The position numbers and the translations under genes were made by a program. A stretch of DNA of 64,000 bases. Source: Rhodococcus jostii RHA1. GTDB lineage: Bacteria > Actinomycetota > Actinomycetes > Mycobacteriales > Mycobacteriaceae. The stretch covers positions 1,984,001 through 2,048,000 of the forward strand of contig NC_008268.1 in NCBI RefSeq assembly GCF_000014565.1, written 5' to 3'. Positions 38,603-46,215 of this stretch are shown piece after piece. The notes under the pieces are model-generated. The model did no database searches and was not told the DNA's origin. It worked only from the letters and a program-made list of their open reading frames with translations. Position 1 is the first letter of the stretch. Each line of letters begins with the position of its first letter.

Positions 38603-39931
38603 GTGACGTCGCCTTGGTCGGAGGGACAGGTCGCATCGGTCGCCCCCGATGCCGGCTCGCTCGCTGCCGCCGGAAAGCTGTCGACCGCGTGGTCGGAGAC
38701 GGGCAGCAACGGCGGCGCGCTCTGGGGACTGTGCCAGGGCAGCGGCAAGAGCCCCTACCGATCGGTCGTCGACCTCTCCGGCCCGGCCTACAACTGCTCG
38801 TGCCCGAGCCGGAAATTTCCCTGCAAACACACGCTCGGCCTGCTGCTGATCTGGTCGCAGGGCCGGGTCCCGGAGCAGTCCGAACCGCCGCCGTTCGCGG
38901 CGGAGTGGCTGAGCCGCCGGGCGGGGCGGGCAACCGCGCCGGCGGCTGCGGCCACCACGACGGCCGGTGCGAAGGCCACCGAACGCCGGGCCGAGCGGGT
39001 GACGGCGGGCCTCGACGAACTCGACCGGTGGCTCACCGACCAGATCCGTAGCGGGCTCGGCGCAGCCGACATCTCGGCATCCGCGTTCGACGCCATCGCG
39101 GCCCGCATGGTCGACGCGCAGGCGCCCGGCATCGCGTCCGCCCTGCGCCGCCTGCCGATCGTCGTGGCCACCCGCGCCGACTGGCCGGACCGGTTGCTCC
39201 GCGAGTACGCCAGGCTGCACCTCCTCGTCGTCGCCCATCGCCGGCTGAACGAGCTACCGGAACCACTGCAGGCGTCGGTGCGCTCGCACGTGGGGTACCC
39301 GGTGGCCACCGACCGCGTGCGCAGCGAGCCGGGAGTCCGCGACCGGTGGATGGTCCTGGGTATGCAGACCACCGAGGAGAAGCGCCTCTTCACCCGCAAG
39401 GTGTGGTTGATCGGCCGCGACCACGGTCGCCGCGCGATCCTCCTGGACTTCGCGCACGGCTCCGCGAACTTCTCGACAGTGGTCCCGCCGCTCGGGTCGC
39501 TCGTCGACGCCACCCTGCACTTCTACCCCGGCGCCGCGCCGCTGCGCGCCCAGTTCGGCGACGCTCACGAGGCCCCCGAACCGTTCACCACCGTCGCACC
39601 GAGCGACGTCGACACCGCTCTCGACCACTTCGCCGCCGCGGTCGGCGCCGACCCGTGGGTCCGCTCGTGGCCGGCGCTGCTCACCGGCGTCACCCCGGCA
39701 ATCGACGACGGGCACTGGTTCCTCGTCGACGCGCAGGGGCGCGCGCTGCCGCTGTCCGGCGAAGACCCTGTCCTGTGGCGGCTCCTCGGAATGTCCGGCG
39801 GCCGTCCCGTCACCCTGTTCGGGGAGTGGACAAGCGAATCGCTGGTTCCCGTGTCGGTGTTCGATCGCGGCGACGTGTACCCGCTCGGGGCCGGCACGCC
39901 CTCGGCCGCGGCGGCGGGGAGCCGGCGATGA
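38603..39931 (+). CDS. SWIM zinc-finger protein
   Basis: 442 residues. A SWIM zinc finger is present at residues 65-76: Cys65-x-Cys67-x6-Cys74-x-His76, a zinc-binding fold that mediates DNA or protein contact. The rest is alpha/beta and has no motif I know. Its C-terminal end overlaps the DUF5691 gene by 4 bp (ATGA). SWIM-domain genes sit at the head of this conserved SWIM-DUF5691-MoxR-DUF5682-VWA block in several actinobacteria, so it is likely a substrate- or nucleic-acid-recognition component. GTG 38603 is chosen; longer reading to 38510 gives a non-coding-like lead. Confidence 0.85.
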   Translation: MTSPWSEGQVASVAPDAGSLAAAGKLSTAWSETGSNGGALWGLCQGSGKSPYRSVVDLSGPAYNCSCPSRKFPCKHTLGLLLIWSQGRVPEQSEPPPFAAEWLSRRAGRATAPAAAATTTAGAKATERRAERVTAGLDELDRWLTDQIRSGLGAADISASAFDAIAARMVDAQAPGIASALRRLPIVVATRADWPDRLLREYARLHLLVVAHRRLNELPEPLQASVRSHVGYPVATDRVRSEPGVRDRWMVLGMQTTEEKRLFTRKVWLIGRDHGRRAILLDFAHGSANFSTVVPPLGSLVDATLHFYPGAAPLRAQFGDAHEAPEPFTTVAPSDVDTALDHFAAAVGADPWVRSWPALLTGVTPAIDDGHWFLVDAQGRALPLSGEDPVLWRLLGMSGGRPVTLFGEWTSESLVPVSVFDRGDVYPLGAGTPSAAAAGSRR

Positions 39932-41403
39932 GCGAACTCCTGTCCGCCGCCTTGCTCGGCACGGCACGGACTGCCCCCTCGTTCGAGGATCTGGCCACCG
40001 GCGAACTGGCACAAGCGGTCAGCGGCGACCCGGCGGAGACCCTGCTGGGCGCCGCCGCGCTCGAGAACGCATACCGCGACGGCGGAGTCGCCGCCTCCGC
40101 GCGCGTGCTGCCCGCCCCCGCCGAGGACGACCCGCGGCTGCAGTTGCCGCCGGCGTCCGCGTCGCACCTGATGCAGTTGCTCGCCGCCAAGTCGTGGACG
40201 CTCACCGAGTGGTTCGCGGTCGTGGCCGAGCGGAACTACCGCGCGCCGGATCATCTCGTCGCCGACCTGATGGCCGTGGCCCGCACCAACGACGCCCACC
40301 GCGAGAGCATCCTCCGGCTGGTGGGGCCCCGCGGCCAGTGGCTCGCCGCGCAGAACCCGGACTGGTCGACGCTGGTCCGCCGATCCGATCGCACCGACGT
40401 GTGGACGCACGGCGCACACCAGGAACGACTGCAATGGCTCACGACGATGCGGGCGGTGAACCCGGCGATCGCGATGGCCGAACTGAGCCGCACCTGGGAT
40501 TCCGAACGGGGCGAGCACCGGGCGGCGTTCATCGCCGTTCTGGGAACGGGGCTCGGCGACGCCGACTCCGCATTGCTCGAGCACGCACTCGACGACCGGC
40601 GGAAAGAAGTGCGCCAGCAGGCGGTCCAGTTGCTGCGCCAGCTGCCGAACTCCGCGTACGCCGGGCGCATGGCCGCTCGCGCCCGGGCATGGGTACGGGT
40701 GGAGAAGAAGCCGCTGCGCACCCGTCTGGTGGTGAACATGCCCGGCTCCCTGGACGATTCGGCCCGTCGCGACGGCATCGAGGACGTCCACTTCAAGAAC
40801 AAGGGAATCCGCAGCTGGTGGTTGCGGATGGTGGTCACCGCCGCCCCCTTGTCGGTGTGGGAAGGCATGATCGGCTCCGCCTCCACCGCGTGGGAGATCC
40901 GGATCGAAGACCAGTGGCGGGAGGTGATGACGGAGGCGTGGACCACCGCGACCGTGCTGCAGCGCAATCCGCGCTGGGCGTCTGCTCTGCTGCACCGGGA
41001 GGGGCGGACAACCGAACGTCGCGTCGTACCGATCGTCCCCGCCCGCGAACGCCTGGCATACATCCTGTCGGGTCGCGCCGACTCCTACCTGCTGGGCGTC
41101 GACGGCGCCGCCCTGTTGGACGGTCTGCCCCACCCCTGGCCGCTCGACCTGGCCGAGCGGGTGATCGCCCGCCTCGAGGACGTCGCCGGGCGGCACGCCG
41201 AGACCGGCAAGGATCTTGGGCAGTTCTCCCGGCACAGCCACTACTCGACCCTCCGCAGCGCCGAGACGCATTTCCCGTTCGCTGCGGCGCCGCTCCTCCG
41301 CGCGGCCGCCGAACGCACCCGTGATCCCGGCTGGCACCAGGCATTCGCCACCGTCGCCACCAACATCGACCATCGCAGAACAGTCCTGAAGGAGCTCGAG
41401 TGA
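39928..41403 (+). CDS. DUF5691 protein of unknown function
   Basis: 491 residues. Mostly helical, with repeat-like segments in the middle (MAELSRTWDSERGEHRAAFIAVL, LEHALDDRRKEVRQQAVQLL) that read like HEAT-type repeats; such folds scaffold protein complexes. No catalytic motif is seen. It is joined to both neighbours by 4-bp overlaps, so it should be made in step with the SWIM protein and the MoxR ATPase. Confidence 0.82.
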   Translation: MSELLSAALLGTARTAPSFEDLATGELAQAVSGDPAETLLGAAALENAYRDGGVAASARVLPAPAEDDPRLQLPPASASHLMQLLAAKSWTLTEWFAVVAERNYRAPDHLVADLMAVARTNDAHRESILRLVGPRGQWLAAQNPDWSTLVRRSDRTDVWTHGAHQERLQWLTTMRAVNPAIAMAELSRTWDSERGEHRAAFIAVLGTGLGDADSALLEHALDDRRKEVRQQAVQLLRQLPNSAYAGRMAARARAWVRVEKKPLRTRLVVNMPGSLDDSARRDGIEDVHFKNKGIRSWWLRMVVTAAPLSVWEGMIGSASTAWEIRIEDQWREVMTEAWTTATVLQRNPRWASALLHREGRTTERRVVPIVPARERLAYILSGRADSYLLGVDGAALLDGLPHPWPLDLAERVIARLEDVAGRHAETGKDLGQFSRHSHYSTLRSAETHFPFAAAPLLRAAAERTRDPGWHQAFATVATNIDHRRTVLKELE

Positions 41404-42503
41404 CCGAGATCGCGGCCGCCCAGGCCGACCTGCTACGACCCCACGCGGAGCAGGCCTACGCCGACGAACTCGCCGCCCTCGCCGCGCACGACACCCGGCC
41501 CCGGCCACCGTCGTGGAAATTGTCTCCGTGGGCGGTCGTCACGTACCTGCTCGGCGGCGAACTCGACGACGGCACCGTCATCACCCCCAAGTACGTCGGT
41601 CCCCGTCGGCTCATCGAGGTGGCCGTCGCGACGCTCGCGACCGACCGCGCGCTGCTTCTGCTCGGCGTCCCCGGAACCGCCAAGACGTGGGTTTCCGAAC
41701 ACCTGTCGGCGGCGGTCTCCGGCGAGTCGACGCTGCTCGTCCAGGGAACGTCGGGGACGCCGGAGGAGGCCATCCGGTACGGCTGGAACTACGCGCGGTT
41801 GCTCGCCGAGGGCCCGACAGCGGGTGCACTCGTTCCGTCCCCCGTCATGACGGCCATGCAGGGCGGGCGGATCGCACGGGTCGAGGAACTCACCCGCATT
41901 CCCGCCGATGTGCAGGACGCGCTCATCACCGTGCTGTCGGAGAAGACGCTGCCCATCCCCGAACTGGGCACCGAGGTGCAGGCCGCCAAGGGTTTCAATC
42001 TGATCGCCACCGCGAACGACCGCGACCGCGGGGTCAACGAACTGTCGTCCGCGCTGCGCAGGCGGTTCAACACGGTGGTCCTGCCGCTGCCCGCCGACGA
42101 GGAGGATGAGGTCGCCATCGTCGCGCGGCGCGTCGAGCAGCTCGGGTCCTCGCTGGAACTACCGAAGATCCCGGCGACCGTCGACGAGATCCGGCGCGTG
42201 GTCACCGTGTTCCGCGAACTCCGGTCGGGCGTCACCGGCGACGGCCGCACCAAGCTGAAGTCGCCGTCCGGAACGCTGTCCACGGCGGAGGCGATCTCCG
42301 TCGTCACCAACGGACTCGCCCTCGCCGCGCACTTCGGCGACGGGGTGCTCCGCCCGTCCGACGTCGCCGCCGGCATCCTCGGGTCCGTGCTGAAGGACCC
42401 GGTCGCCGACAAGGTGGTGTGGACGGAGTACCTCGAGGCCGTGGTCCGCGAACGGGAGGACTGGGCCGACTTCTACCGGGCGTGCCGCGAGGTCACCGGG
42501 TGA
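41400..42503 (+). CDS. MoxR-type AAA+ ATPase
   Basis: 367 residues. Walker A GVPGTAKT at 89-96. The Walker B position reads VEELTR (161-166) in place of the usual DEINR: Asp is replaced by Glu162, while the catalytic Glu163 is kept. Sensor 1 is in LIATANDRD and the arginine region is LRRRF. MoxR ATPases act as chaperones or unfoldases with VWA partners, often to insert metals or activate enzymes. The VWA gene is two genes downstream. GTGA overlaps join it to both neighbours. Confidence 0.9.
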   Translation: MTEIAAAQADLLRPHAEQAYADELAALAAHDTRPRPPSWKLSPWAVVTYLLGGELDDGTVITPKYVGPRRLIEVAVATLATDRALLLLGVPGTAKTWVSEHLSAAVSGESTLLVQGTSGTPEEAIRYGWNYARLLAEGPTAGALVPSPVMTAMQGGRIARVEELTRIPADVQDALITVLSEKTLPIPELGTEVQAAKGFNLIATANDRDRGVNELSSALRRRFNTVVLPLPADEEDEVAIVARRVEQLGSSLELPKIPATVDEIRRVVTVFRELRSGVTGDGRTKLKSPSGTLSTAEAISVVTNGLALAAHFGDGVLRPSDVAAGILGSVLKDPVADKVVWTEYLEAVVREREDWADFYRACREVTG

Positions 42504-44668
42504 ACTCCGACGTCCGTGTCTTCGGCATCCGCCACCACGGGCCCGGTTCGGCACGATCGGTGCGGCGCGCGCTCGACGAATTCGTCCCCGACGCCGTCCT
42601 GATCGAAGGGCCCGCGGACGCCGATCCGCTGGTCGCGTTGACCGCCTCCGACACCATGGAACCTCCGGTGGCCCTGCTCGCGTATGCCACCGGGGAGCCC
42701 CGGACGGCGGCGTTCTGGCCGTTCGCCGTGTTCTCCCCGGAGTGGCAGGCGCTGTCGTGGGCGGCTGGGCGCGGCGTCGAAGTCCGCTTCTGCGACCTGC
42801 CCGCCGCCAACACCCTCGCCGCCGACGACTCCGAGCCCCGTGCCGAGGATCCGCTGACCCAGTTGGCCGCCGCGGCGGGCTACGACGACACCGAACGCTG
42901 GTGGGACGCCGTCATCGAATCGGGTTCGGGTCCCGACTCGTTCGACGCGATCACCGAGGCCATGACCGCCCTGCGGGACACCGTCGAACTCGACGAACCC
43001 ACCAGCAGGCGCGAGGCGTACATGCGGCAGACGCTGCGGAAGGTGATCAAGGGCGGCGCGCAGCGGATCGCGGTGGTGTGCGGTGCCTGGCACGCCCCCG
43101 CACTAGCCGGACCTCTCGGACCGGCCACCGCGGACGCGCGAATCCTCAAGGGACTCCCCAAGATCAAGACCTCGCTCACGTGGGTGCCGTGGACGCACTC
43201 GCGGCTGTCCGCCGCGTCCGGGTACGGCGCCGGGATCACCTCCCCCGGCTGGTATCACCACCTGTTCACCGCACCGGACCGGACGATCACCCGATGGCTC
43301 ACGAAGGTCGCGCGGGTACTGCGGGACGAGGACCTTCCGGTGTCGAGCGCGCACGTCATCGAATCCGTCCGTCTCGCGGACACGTTGGCAGCAATGCGTG
43401 CGCGGCCGCTCGCCGGTCTCTCCGAGGTCACCGAGGCCACCCGCGCCGTGATGTGCGACGGCGACGATGTCCTGCTCGACCTCATCACGCGTCGTCTCGT
43501 CGTCGGCGAGGCACTCGGCGCCGTCCCGGAGAACACCCCGACAGTTCCCCTCGACGCCGACCTGCGGGCGCGGGCGAAAACCCTGCGGCTCAAGCAGCAG
43601 GCCACCGAGAAGACCATCGACCTCGACCTGCGCAGAGACAACGACGTCGCGCGGTCCCGGCTCCTGCACCGCCTGCAGATCCTCGGTGTCGACTGGGGCA
43701 CGCCGGCCGACAGCGACGTCCGCGGCACCGGCACGTTCCGTGAAACGTGGTCCCTCACCTGGAAACCCGAACTGGCGGTGTCGATCATCGAGGCGTCGCT
43801 GTGGGGAACCACCGTCGAGGCCGCGGCTACAGCGACGGTGCGCGAGGGGGCGTCGTCCGCTGATGTCTCCCTCGCCCAGCTCACCGGGCTGCTCGAACAG
43901 GCCCTGCTGTCGGATCTCGGCGATGCGCTGGCCGAGCTGCTGCGCGCACTGGAGACGGCTGCCACGCTCGACCACGACGTGATGCACCTGATGGATGCCC
44001 TGCCCGCGCTCACCCGCACGCTGCGATACGGAGACGTCCGCGGCACCGACGTCTCGTCCCTCACCCGCGTCACCGACAGCCTGCTCGTCCGCATCTGCGC
44101 CGGACTGCCCACCGCGATATCGGGTCTCGACGACGACAGCGCACTCGACCTGCGCCGCGCCGTCGACGACGTCCACGCGGCGGTGATGCTGCGCGACGAC
44201 GATCGTGCGTCGGCGCGGTGGCTCGGCACACTCGCCGGCCTCGTCGACCGCAGCGACGTGAACGGCCTCGTGATCGGACGCATGGTCCGATTGCTCCGCG
44301 ACGCAGGCACCGTCAGCGAAACCGAGTCCGCCACCCGACTGTCGCGGGCACTGTCCGTCGGCGCGGATCCCTCCGCCAAGGCGGGGTGGGTCGACGGCTT
44401 CCTCGGCGGCGCAGGGCTGCTGCTGGTCCACGACCGGCAATTGCTGCATCTGCTCGACGGATGGGTGTCGGGACTGCGCGAGCAGGACTTCGTCGACGTT
44501 CTGCCACTGCTGCGGCGCACGTTCGGCGGGTTCGAAACCGGGGAACGCCGGGCCATCGGGCAGTCCGTGGAGGGCGGGTCCACGGAAGATGCCCGCGCCG
44601 AGGTCGACGCTAGGCGGGGCACGATCGCGATCCGGACCGTCGCGGACATTCTGGGGGTGACGTCGTGA
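42500..44668 (+). CDS. DUF5682 protein, TIKI/TraB/EreA-like motifs
   Basis: 722 residues. The N-terminus carries GIRHHGPGSARS (9-20) then PDAVLIEGP (Glu36), and further on AVVCGAWHAPAL. The order GxxH, Glu, then G-x-x-H resembles the TIKI/TraB/PrgY and EreA/ChaN metal-hydrolase fold; this is my inference from pattern only. The C-terminal two thirds is helical and of unknown role. It shares 4-bp GTGA overlaps with the MoxR ATPase before it and the VWA gene after it, so it is probably the enzyme or client that the MoxR-VWA machine acts on. Confidence 0.85.
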   Translation: MNSDVRVFGIRHHGPGSARSVRRALDEFVPDAVLIEGPADADPLVALTASDTMEPPVALLAYATGEPRTAAFWPFAVFSPEWQALSWAAGRGVEVRFCDLPAANTLAADDSEPRAEDPLTQLAAAAGYDDTERWWDAVIESGSGPDSFDAITEAMTALRDTVELDEPTSRREAYMRQTLRKVIKGGAQRIAVVCGAWHAPALAGPLGPATADARILKGLPKIKTSLTWVPWTHSRLSAASGYGAGITSPGWYHHLFTAPDRTITRWLTKVARVLRDEDLPVSSAHVIESVRLADTLAAMRARPLAGLSEVTEATRAVMCDGDDVLLDLITRRLVVGEALGAVPENTPTVPLDADLRARAKTLRLKQQATEKTIDLDLRRDNDVARSRLLHRLQILGVDWGTPADSDVRGTGTFRETWSLTWKPELAVSIIEASLWGTTVEAAATATVREGASSADVSLAQLTGLLEQALLSDLGDALAELLRALETAATLDHDVMHLMDALPALTRTLRYGDVRGTDVSSLTRVTDSLLVRICAGLPTAISGLDDDSALDLRRAVDDVHAAVMLRDDDRASARWLGTLAGLVDRSDVNGLVIGRMVRLLRDAGTVSETESATRLSRALSVGADPSAKAGWVDGFLGGAGLLLVHDRQLLHLLDGWVSGLREQDFVDVLPLLRRTFGGFETGERRAIGQSVEGGSTEDARAEVDARRGTIAIRTVADILGVTS

Positions 44669-44710
44669 CCGAGGACGCGGAGCGGTTACGTCGGTGGCGG
44701 CTGCTGGGGC
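44665..44710 (+). pseudogene. Out-of-frame N-terminus of the VWA gene (apparent frameshift)
   Basis: GTG 44665 overlaps the DUF5682 stop as in the other gene joints and encodes VTEDAERLRRWRLL, a plausible VWA-family N-terminus. After the GGGG run at 44706-44709 the VWA frame (GNAAEESTGG...) is one base ahead. A run of three G would join the two parts into a 385-residue protein. It may be a sequencing error, a real mutation or recoding; the sequence alone cannot decide. Confidence 0.65.
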
Positions 44711-44761
44711 AACGCCGCCGAGGAATCCACCGGAGGTCTCGCGTCCAAGGCGGACGCGGCG

Positions 44762-45823
44762 ATGGACGGCGCTCTGGCCGCCCTCTACGACACCAGCAGC
44801 GAAGGGTCGAAGAGCCGCCGTCGCGGCGCGGGTCTCGGCGGATCGGCGCCGAAGGTCGCGCGCTGGCTCGGCGACATCCGCACCTACTTCCCGAGCAGCG
44901 TCGTGCAGGTGATGCAGAAGGACGCCATCGACCGGCTCGGCCTCACCCAGCTGCTCCTCGAACCCGAACTGCTCGACGCCGTCGAACCGGACGTCCACCT
45001 CGTCGGCACGCTGCTGAGCCTGAACCGGGTGATGCCCGAGACCAGCAAGGCCACCGCCCGGATGGTCGTCGAGAAGGTGGTCCGGGAGGTGGAGGAACGG
45101 ATCGCGCAGAAGACCAGGACAGCCGTCACCGGTGCCCTGAACCGGTCTGCCCGCATCACCAACCCCAAGTACCGCGACATCGACTGGAATCGCACCATCC
45201 GCGCCAACCTCGCGCACTACCTCCCCGAGTACAAGACGGTGGTGCCGGAACGACTGCTCGGATACGGCCGCCGATCGCAGGCCGTGCACCGCGACGTCGT
45301 CCTCGCCATCGACCAATCCGGGTCGATGGCGTCGAGCGTCGTGTACGCGTCCGTGTTCGGCGCGGTCCTCGCCTCGATGCGCGCGCTGAAGACGTCGCTG
45401 ATCGTGTTCGACACGGCGGTCGTCGACCTCACCGACAAGCTGTCCGATCCCGTCGACGTGCTGTTCGGCACGCAACTCGGCGGCGGCACCGACATCAACC
45501 GGGCCATCGCCTACAGCCAGTCGCTGATCGACAGACCGACCGAATCGCTGTTCGTGCTGATCTCGGACCTGTACGAGGGCGGGATCCGCGCGGAGATGCT
45601 GCGGCGGATGTCGGCGATGAAAAACGTAGGCGTCCAGGTGGTTGTTCTGCTGGCGCTGTCCGACGACGGCGCCCCGTCGTTCGATCACGACAACGCGGCG
45701 GCCCTCGGTGCGCTCGGCATCCCCGCATTCGCCTGCACCCCGGACAGGTTCCCGGAACTGCTGGCGCTCGCACTCGAACGCGGCGACATCGGCAGGTGGG
45801 CGGACAGTCTTCAGACGGAGTGA
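44762..45823 (+). CDS. VWA-domain protein (MoxR partner)
   Basis: 353 residues from the first ATG in the frame. A von Willebrand A domain is in the C-terminal half with an intact MIDAS: AIDQSGSMASS (DxSxS), GGGTDINRA (Thr) and LISDLYEGG (Asp). The N-terminal helices (KVARWLGDIRTYFPSSVVQVMQKDAIDRLG) are those of the MoxR-linked VWA family. It would bind Mg and work with the MoxR ATPase two genes upstream. The natural start appears to be GTG 44665, with an apparent frameshift in between; ATG 44762 has only a weak ribosome site. Confidence 0.82.
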   Translation: MDGALAALYDTSSEGSKSRRRGAGLGGSAPKVARWLGDIRTYFPSSVVQVMQKDAIDRLGLTQLLLEPELLDAVEPDVHLVGTLLSLNRVMPETSKATARMVVEKVVREVEERIAQKTRTAVTGALNRSARITNPKYRDIDWNRTIRANLAHYLPEYKTVVPERLLGYGRRSQAVHRDVVLAIDQSGSMASSVVYASVFGAVLASMRALKTSLIVFDTAVVDLTDKLSDPVDVLFGTQLGGGTDINRAIAYSQSLIDRPTESLFVLISDLYEGGIRAEMLRRMSAMKNVGVQVVVLLALSDDGAPSFDHDNAAALGALGIPAFACTPDRFPELLALALERGDIGRWADSLQTE

Positions 45824-45830
45824 CCGGGGG

Positions 45831-46034
45831 TCAGCCGGCGGCCATCCGGCGGTCGCTGTGCAGTTCGGGGTGCGCGTCGGCGCGGATCCTGAGCAGGACC
45901 AGTCCGGAGACCGAGGCGACGATCAGCGACGCGACCGTCCAGGGAACGTGCAGTTCGGAGATCCCGACTCCCGCACCGACGAGTCCCACGAAAAGCAGGC
46001 TCCACATGATCGCTTTGACTGGACCGGACCCCAT
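45831..46034 (-). CDS. Small two-helix membrane protein, unknown
   Basis: 67 residues. Two hydrophobic helices (AIMWSLLFVGLVGAGVGI and WTVASLIVASVSGLVLL) with a basic C-terminal tail. AAGGAGC is well placed before ATG 46034. Not recognised. Its stop lies 7 bp from the convergent VWA stop. Confidence 0.7.
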   Translation of the reverse strand: MGSGPVKAIMWSLLFVGLVGAGVGISELHVPWTVASLIVASVSGLVLLRIRADAHPELHSDRRMAAG

Positions 46035-46169: not shown

Positions 46170-46215
46170 CCCGTGAGTACTTATTAACCGCCCGCGGTTA
46201 ATAAGTACTCACGGG
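46170..46215. terminator. Long perfect hairpin, 22-bp arms, 2-bp loop
   Basis: The arms at 46170-46191 and 46194-46215 are exact reverse complements with CC between them. The element lies five bases before the 3' end of the acyl-CoA dehydrogenase gene (46221) and so sits immediately downstream of that minus-strand operon. There is no U-tract. The size is unusual for an intrinsic terminator. Confidence 0.65.

What the first reader, a model, noticed from the sequence alone, without database searches (positions are those of the whole stretch)
38603..45823. Five-gene SWIM-DUF5691-MoxR-DUF5682-VWA machine
Five genes are joined by four consecutive 4-bp ATGA/GTGA overlaps, so the products should be made in fixed proportion. 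MoxR AAA+ and VWA with intact MIDAS are a known chaperone pair. DUF5691 is probably a scaffold and SWIM a zinc-binding recognition module. The job of the whole block is, as far as I know, not established; possibilities are enzyme activation, regulated proteolysis or a conflict system.
Basis: partly seen in the sequence, partly recalled or inferred. Interest (0 to 1): 0.85.

Follow-up and report, generated by a model that had tools for sequence, protein, structure and literature searches.

The report
ATP-driven machine around a TraB-like protein
Five neighbouring bacterial genes appear to encode one ATP-powered protein machine, related to a little-studied E. coli gene cluster (yehL-yehM-yehP-yehQ), whose central unknown protein looks like a hydrolase of the TraB/TIKI kind.

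Summary
The five genes are real and at the stated coordinates. Three of the four claimed 4-bp overlaps are true. The fourth (GTGA, 44665-44668) opens a frame that is not the VWA frame: this copy is 2 nt shorter there than four relatives, while 13 of 13 congeneric loci checked (11 distinct) read through intact. The block is a unit: 69 of the 80 loci kept carry all five genes, 68 of them on one strand in one order. SWIM and DUF5691 are fused in 22 of 80; DUF5682 and VWA are fused in six other loci. MoxR-DUF5682-VWA is the shared core: with DUF5691 in four phyla, with DUF4132 in E. coli yehI-L-M-P-Q and relatives. So this is the YehL subfamily of MoxR systems, in a DUF5691 variant. New inference: the DUF5682 N-terminus is a TraB/TIKI-like domain (two GX2H motifs, near-invariant E36/E81/D99/R171/E172) and DUF5691 a HEAT/ARM-type solenoid. 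Most likely a MoxR/VWA motor remodels or gates a DUF5682 hydrolase, with SWIM-DUF5691 as recognition scaffold. Activity and substrate are unproven; the fold evidence is below database cut-offs. Near-universal presence in E. coli and no PADLOC match speak against a typical phage-defence island.

The parts
38603..39931 (+). SWIM zinc-finger protein (442 aa from GTG 38603; alternative TTG 38510, 473 aa); SWIM motif CSCPSRKFPCKH at residue 65 of the 442-aa form
   Evidence: PF04434 2.5e-5; ORF and motif
39928..41403 (+). DUF5691, 491 aa, predicted all-helical HEAT/ARM-type solenoid
   Evidence: PF18944 1.1e-120; AlphaFold2 pLDDT 86.2; fold lists are mostly HEAT/ARM proteins, none with Foldseek E<=0.001
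41400..42503 (+). MoxR AAA+ ATPase of YehL type, 367 aa; Walker A, Walker B (VEE), sensor 1, arginine finger intact
   Evidence: AAA_5 1.3e-37; 40% to E. coli YehL, 5e-79; motifs; tree
42500..44668 (+). DUF5682, 722 aa: N-terminal alpha/beta TraB/TIKI-like domain plus C-terminal helical repeats
   Evidence: PF18934 6.4e-269; 27% to E. coli YehM, 6e-42; model pLDDT 85.5
42500..43189 (+). predicted TraB/TIKI-like domain of DUF5682 (residues about 1-230): G9-x-x-H12, E36, S79/E81, D99, R171/E172/M175, G195-x-x-H198
   Evidence: conservation; weak TraB/ChaN Pfam matches; fold matches
44762..45823 (+). VWA_CoxE protein as encoded here, 353 aa from ATG 44762, MIDAS intact
   Evidence: PF05762 2.1e-50; 35% to E. 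coli YehP, 1e-70; frame check
44665..44761 (+). N-terminal coding stretch of the VWA gene, out of frame with the rest in this copy (2 nt shorter than in L032-L035)
46170..46215 (.). perfect palindrome (22-bp arms, 2-bp centre) between the convergent VWA and acyl-CoA dehydrogenase genes; possible bidirectional terminator (inferred)
   Evidence: the terminator scan, which needs a T run, found nothing

Best explanation
A YehL-type MoxR/VWA remodelling motor dedicated to DUF5682. MoxR forms an ATPase ring; the VWA protein couples it to DUF5682, which carries a TraB/TIKI-like hydrolase domain (predicted site H12, E36, E81, D99, R171/E172, H198) on a helical-repeat body. SWIM-DUF5691 is a zinc plus HEAT/ARM recognition scaffold that brings the substrate, or holds the enzyme in check. 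ATP hydrolysis twists the VWA-DUF5682 connection and so opens, activates or unloads the enzyme. Shown by computation: the genes, their linkage, the fusions, intact motifs, the YehL grouping. Predicted: both folds and the site. Inferred: physical complex, hydrolase activity, ATP gating, role of SWIM-DUF5691. Confidence by layer: one complex 0.85; TraB/TIKI-like fold 0.75; active hydrolase 0.5; ATP-gated by the motor 0.4.
Against: No TraB/ChaN match reaches its Pfam cut-off, and unrelated families score as well: RepB_primase_C best 0.001 in 4 of 61 members, CBM46 0.0038 on the YehM N-domain. Profile-profile comparison of the DUF5682 N-domain with an enterobacterial YbaP-only profile found nothing (0.1% probability, like the controls). 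No Foldseek match below E 0.001 in PDB or BFVD; helical repeats fill the PDB list. The first GX2H motif lacks the Glu of the 2His/2Glu set described for RRSP/Ere enzymes (PMC6254334 passages). TIKI-fold proteins include non-enzymes, so a fold does not prove activity. This copy's VWA gene has a broken N-terminal frame. SWIM-DUF5691 is not always co-directional with the core (8 of 18 genomes opposite), so it may be less tightly bound to it. No interaction or activity data.
Confidence: 0.43

Rival explanations
1. A cofactor or metal-insertion chaperone like NorQD/CoxDE: MoxR-VWA acts on an unlinked client enzyme, DUF5682 is the client-docking adaptor or metal handler with no hydrolase role, SWIM-DUF5691 gives client specificity.
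For: The VWA is of CoxE type; characterised MoxR/VWA pairs mature enzymes (PMC13036017 part 1, PMC3893208 passages). DUF4132/MolR, next to E. coli yehL-Q, has been tied to molybdate metabolism (one passage of PMC8533742, which itself reports moeA/moeB not differentially expressed). ChaN of the same fold class is named a haem-binding protein (Pfam name).
Against: No client gene was seen to recur beside the block: no flanking family reached more than 4 of 22 genus labels among 3703 flank ORFs. A near-invariant polar site in DUF5682 is more than an adaptor needs.
Confidence: 0.25
2. A stress or conflict (anti-phage or DNA-damage) system: the complex is a gated effector released on infection or damage.
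For: MoxR-vWA ternary conflict systems exist with other third components (PMC7159879 passages). E. coli molR is listed as LexA-regulated (PMC11039860 passage), and a LexA-like CTGGATAAAATTACAG ends 9 bp before the yehF start codon (L001 450-465; 12 such relaxed hits in the locus against 5.9 expected). Some copies sit on plasmids near IS, toxin-antitoxin or restriction genes.
Against: yehL-Q matches 5301 of 5426 E. coli genomes, 5162 over at least 80%; 20 of 27 congeneric genomes sampled carry DUF5682; no PADLOC model at E<=0.01 for 5 window or 6 E. coli proteins. The only phage-collection hit is an unverified scaffold whose neighbouring ORFs look cellular by eye. No SOS-like box of the three patterns tried upstream of the window operon.
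Confidence: 0.15
3. A co-regulated operon without one complex: the proteins act in one pathway but do not form a machine.
For: Gene overlaps alone show only translational coupling; the SWIM-DUF5691 pair is divergent from the core in L101, L126 and L129, and DUF5691 and DUF5682 lie on opposite strands in 8 of 18 genomes.
Against: Two different fusions, adjacency kept across phyla, and the known MoxR-VWA physical partnership.
Confidence: 0.1

Closest known systems
E. coli yehL-yehM-yehP-yehQ (with yehI DUF4132), YehL subfamily of MoxR
   Same: Homologous core: MoxR 40% to YehL, DUF5682 27% to YehM, VWA 35% to YehP; a SWIM protein in the cluster; YehL falls among the DUF5682-linked MoxRs.
   Different: E. 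coli has DUF4132 (YehI) beside the core and no DUF5691 (control), and its SWIM gene comes last. YehQ aligns to the window SWIM protein only around the motif, 0.5% probability; DUF4132 and DUF5691 show no similarity, 0.3%.
NorQ-NorD, CoxD-CoxE and RavA-ViaA MoxR/VWA pairs
   Same: MoxR ring ATPase plus MIDAS-bearing VWA partner; VWA with an N-terminal partner domain in the fused forms.
   Different: Here a separate DUF5682 takes the place of the N-terminal domain, and SWIM-DUF5691 is added. E. coli RavA was not matched by the MoxR profile at E<=1.
MoxR-vWA ternary conflict systems (VMAP, iSTAND, FtsH, beta-propeller; Kaur et al. 2020, PMC7159879 passages)
   Same: MoxR-vWA pair with an obligatory third protein.
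   Different: Third component is DUF5682; none of theirs was matched by Pfam; bpMoxR match is below cut-off.
TraB/PrgY/GumN, ChaN, TIKI, Ere superfamily
   Same: Two GX2H motifs, Glu at the end of strand 2, Arg on the helix before the last GX2H, order of strands and helices as far as recalled.
   Different: Below Pfam cut-offs; extra HEAT-like C-terminal body; coupled to an AAA+ motor.

Membership tests
YehL subfamily of MoxR | MoxR sequence groups with E. coli YehL rather than other MoxRs | tested here: met
   29 DUF5682-linked MoxRs including YehL on one side (100/100) of 4 other CoxE-linked MoxRs of the same genome; two of these outgroup rows are under half filled and all are long; RavA could not be included
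YehL subfamily of MoxR | local gene structure with VWA, DUF5682/YehM and SWIM genes | tested here: met
   the original definition (Snider and Houry 2006) was not seen; PMC3893208 (passages) names the subfamily and cites a source
MoxR-VWA chaperone pair | Walker A/B, sensor 1, arginine finger; MIDAS DxSxS-T-D; neighbouring genes | tested here: met
   (80 of 80 and 79 of 79 rows; R220 and R221 79 of 80, T96 77 of 80 with S in 3)
MoxR-VWA chaperone pair | hexameric ring and physical binding of VWA | not testable with these tools
   needs purified proteins
TraB/TIKI/ChaN/Ere superfamily | Pfam curated score (PF01963, PF04187) | tested here: not met
   17.3 and 17.1 bits in the best members printed, against cut-offs 26.8 and 27.7; the member with E 0.0015 was not printed
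TraB/TIKI/ChaN/Ere superfamily | two GX2H motifs, Glu after strand 2, Arg in the penultimate helix (motif rule recalled; YbaP shows it) | tested here: met
   G9IRH12, E36, R171, G195AWH198
TraB/TIKI/ChaN/Ere superfamily | 2His/2Glu set of the Ere/RRSP branch (ExH in the first motif) | tested here: not met
   residue 10 is I or V in nearly every row, not Glu; TraB-branch YbaP also lacks it
TraB/TIKI/ChaN/Ere superfamily | three-dimensional core | tested here: inconclusive
MoxR-vWA ternary conflict systems | VMAP, iSTAND, FtsH or beta-propeller third component | tested here: not met
   Pfam scan of the five proteins: none matched; bpMoxR 22.5 against cut-off 27. By Pfam only
known anti-phage defence system (PADLOC 2.0.0) | match to a PADLOC model | tested here: not met
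   (only IetA at E 0.025-0.027 for MoxR)

The most novel reading that the evidence does not exclude
DUF5682 defines a so far undescribed class of ATP-gated enzyme: a TraB/TIKI-fold hydrolase (perhaps a peptidase or esterase) permanently coupled to a MoxR/VWA motor, with an exchangeable recognition module (SWIM-DUF5691 or DUF4132/WGR plus YehQ-type SWIM), conserved from E. coli to actinobacteria and possibly linked to DNA-damage control in the E. coli lineage.
Probability: 0.3. Interest if true: 0.82.

Novelty: new variant of a known kind. Interest (0 to 1): 0.6.

Why it matters
E. coli K-12 encodes two MoxR ATPases, RavA and YehL (PMC3893208 passage). RavA is studied; no functional study of YehL and its partners appeared in the listings I searched (and 118, which showed 40 of 650 papers, mostly an author's surname). 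Showing that the same core runs from E. coli to actinobacteria, and that its unnamed protein has a TraB/TIKI-like site with near-invariant residues, turns 'two DUFs and a motor' into a testable enzyme hypothesis in a laboratory strain. If true, it would add a motor-coupled hydrolase to the MoxR/VWA repertoire of chaperones.

Tried and rejected

Other phyla are seen through 9 of the 36 matching plasmid records and E. coli. Of the 11 loci without all five genes, ten have DUF5682 within 2.65 kb of an upstream contig end or 11 bp of a downstream one, but L109 (cyanobacterium) also lacks a VWA match in the 10 kb that follow, which no contig end explains; L078 lacks DUF5691 in a full-length locus. 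The 13 congeneric loci used for the VWA frame are 11 distinct (L033=L151, L035=L154 over 2000 bases). In one search the junction lists show the 12 commonest classes only. The dN/dS figures are a rough count of my own script. Genus labels were typed from record titles. G000's MoxR outgroup had 4 usable rows of 7 tried, and RavA fell out.
Full report
OBSERVATION. The window lies in a 9.7-Mb genome (G000:C1:1984001-2048000). Its DUF5682 protein is 97% identical (best segment) to that of Rhodococcus opacus ATCC 51881. Five genes run on the + strand: SWIM 38603-39931, DUF5691 39928-41403, MoxR 41400-42503, DUF5682 42500-44668, VWA to 45823. The first three junctions are ATGA, GTGA and GTGA overlaps. 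The fourth GTGA (44665-44668) is there, but the frame it opens is not that of the VWA domain, which is reachable only from ATG 44762. In L032-L035 the same stretch is 99 nt and in frame; here it is 97 nt. Thirteen of 13 congeneric loci checked, 11 of them distinct, read in frame through the MIDAS motif. So the VWA protein here either starts late (353 aa, MIDAS intact, N-terminal stretch lost) or the sequence has an error; I cannot tell which.

IS IT A UNIT? A scan of GTDB species genomes kept 80 loci, the best of 558 confirmed. All five genes are found in 69 of 80. Of the other 11, ten have DUF5682 within 2.65 kb of an upstream contig end or 11 bp of a downstream one; one of these, the cyanobacterial L109, also lacks a VWA match in the 10 kb downstream, and L078 is full-length but lacks a DUF5691 match. 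In 68 of the 69 all genes are on one strand in the order SWIM-DUF5691-MoxR-DUF5682-VWA (three with an extra hit); in L101 the SWIM-DUF5691 pair is divergent. The one-strand rule is not general: in the wider draw below, DUF5691 and DUF5682 lie on opposite strands in 8 of 18 genomes, all of one unnamed genus. No other gene family was seen to recur in the flanks: the widest of 3703 flank ORFs reaches 4 of 22 genus labels. In L036, L037, L061, L062 and L063 nucleotide similarity to the window (hits over 250 bases) is confined to parts of the block, while L032-L035 are alike beyond it. In one draw of 296 actinobacterial genomes, DUF5682 is in 21 and DUF5691 (over cut-off) in 18, all 18 shared and 1.2-3.3 kb apart; Fisher p=4.7e-26. 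Three DUF5691 matches below cut-off (G049, G153, G187) were dropped from that count. All five genes look to be under purifying selection, rough dN/dS 0.055-0.255 against L034 and L035.

ARCHITECTURES. Profiles run on 31 further loci show a common core MoxR-DUF5682-VWA with changing partners. Type I, SWIM-DUF5691-core: Actinomycetota, Deinococcus (L132), Hymenobacter (L133), Rhizobium and Methylosinus plasmids (L134, L135; DUF5691 scores there are low, 52-70 bits, but the records name the domain; the Methylosinus VWA is in three frames and the Rhizobium SWIM in two). Type II, DUF4132 with core and YehQ-type SWIM: E. coli yehI-L-M-P-Q (L001), Iodobacter (L137), Agrobacterium vitis (L136), an unnamed actinobacterial genome (L116); L121 has DUF4132 and the core. 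Type III, MoxR plus a DUF5682-VWA fusion: L112-L115 and L120 (unnamed) and Streptomyces atratus L139. A fourth, divergent form (L117, L119) has VWA-MoxR followed by a DUF5682-like gene; in L118 my profile missed that gene although the Pfam search had found it. Fusobacterium L141 has the core and a weak SWIM match. Fusions: SWIM-DUF5691 in 22 of 80 loci (Nocardia, Phytohabitans), in L125 and in Hymenobacter; DUF5682-VWA in type III. These fusions are the strongest sequence evidence that the pairs work together. A MoxR tree puts 29 DUF5682-linked MoxRs, YehL among them, on one side of a 100/100 branch from four other CoxE-linked MoxRs of the same genome.

MECHANISM. MoxR keeps Walker A K95, a Walker B of the form VEE (E162/E163), sensor 1 N206 and arginine-finger R222 in 80 of 80 rows; VWA keeps all five MIDAS residues in 79 of 79. 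In NorQD the VWA finger enters the MoxR pore, and ATPase work is proposed to twist the linker of NorD (PMC13036017, part 1 of 7). Type III proteins have DUF5682 in the place of NorD's N-terminal domain. I infer that the motor remodels DUF5682 through VWA, and that SWIM-DUF5691 selects what DUF5682 acts on. Whether DUF5682 is an active hydrolase is open: TIKI-fold proteins include hydrolases and a member without the catalytic set (PMC6254334 passages).

DISTRIBUTION AND ROLE. E. coli yehL-Q matches 5301 of 5426 genomes, 5162 over at least 80% of length. In the window's genus 20 of 27 sampled genomes carry DUF5682; six of the seven without it are 4.4-4.9 Mb, the seventh is 74% complete. PADLOC finds nothing at E<=0.01. 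This is not how a defence island usually behaves. A stress link is possible for type II: molR is listed as LexA-regulated (PMC11039860 passage) and a LexA-like box precedes yehF, but that yehL-Q share that control is not shown. In Deinococcus radiodurans an operon with a DUF4132 protein (DRA0166) was strongly upregulated on DdrO depletion (PMC8533742 passage).

NOVELTY. The MoxR subfamily is known by name (YehL; PMC3893208 passages), so this is a new variant of a known kind. No held paper mentions DUF5682 or DUF5691, and no functional study of yehL, yehM, yehP or yehQ surfaced in the listings seen (the last shows 40 of 650). New here, as far as those searches go, are the cross-phylum equivalence of the two architectures, the two fusions, the TraB/TIKI-like site of DUF5682 and the solenoid of DUF5691.

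Noticed in passing
window 44665-44761: The VWA gene's N-terminal stretch is 2 nt shorter than in four relatives, so the frame from the overlapping GTG does not reach the VWA domain; intact copies exist in all 13 congeneric loci checked (11 distinct). Real mutation or sequencing error is open.
   Followed up: partly
window 46170-46215: Perfect palindrome with 22-bp arms between two convergent transcription units; possible bidirectional terminator without a T run.
   Followed up: partly
window 45831-46034, minus strand: A 67-aa ORF that looks to have two hydrophobic stretches, convergent with and immediately downstream of VWA.
   Followed up: no
L001 450-465 (NC_000913.3 2196449-2196464): LexA-like sequence CTGGATAAAATTACAG just upstream of yehF, the first gene of the E. 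coli WGR/DUF4132/yehL-Q string; fits the literature listing of molR as LexA-regulated.
   Followed up: partly
L140 (MT835988.1): An 'unverified Bacteriophage sp.' scaffold carries MoxR-DUF5682-VWA, but other ORFs look cellular by eye; probably host DNA.
   Followed up: partly
L135 (Methylosinus trichosporium plasmid) about 11.2-12.4 kb; L134 (Rhizobium plasmid) about 5-6.5 kb: The VWA gene of L135 matches in three reading frames and the SWIM gene of L134 in two, so they seem degenerate there.
   Followed up: no
E. coli metG/DUF4132/yeh region: The region is a reported insertion site of a resistance transposon in ST131 (PMC9334617 passages), and a few records in the plasmid collection labelled E. 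coli carry yehM.
   Followed up: no
L112-L120, L139: Several actinobacterial genomes hold two or three DUF5682 paralogs in different architectures, some fused to VWA; in Streptomyces atratus L139 a 1640-residue 'DNA-binding protein' gene lies just before MoxR.
   Followed up: no
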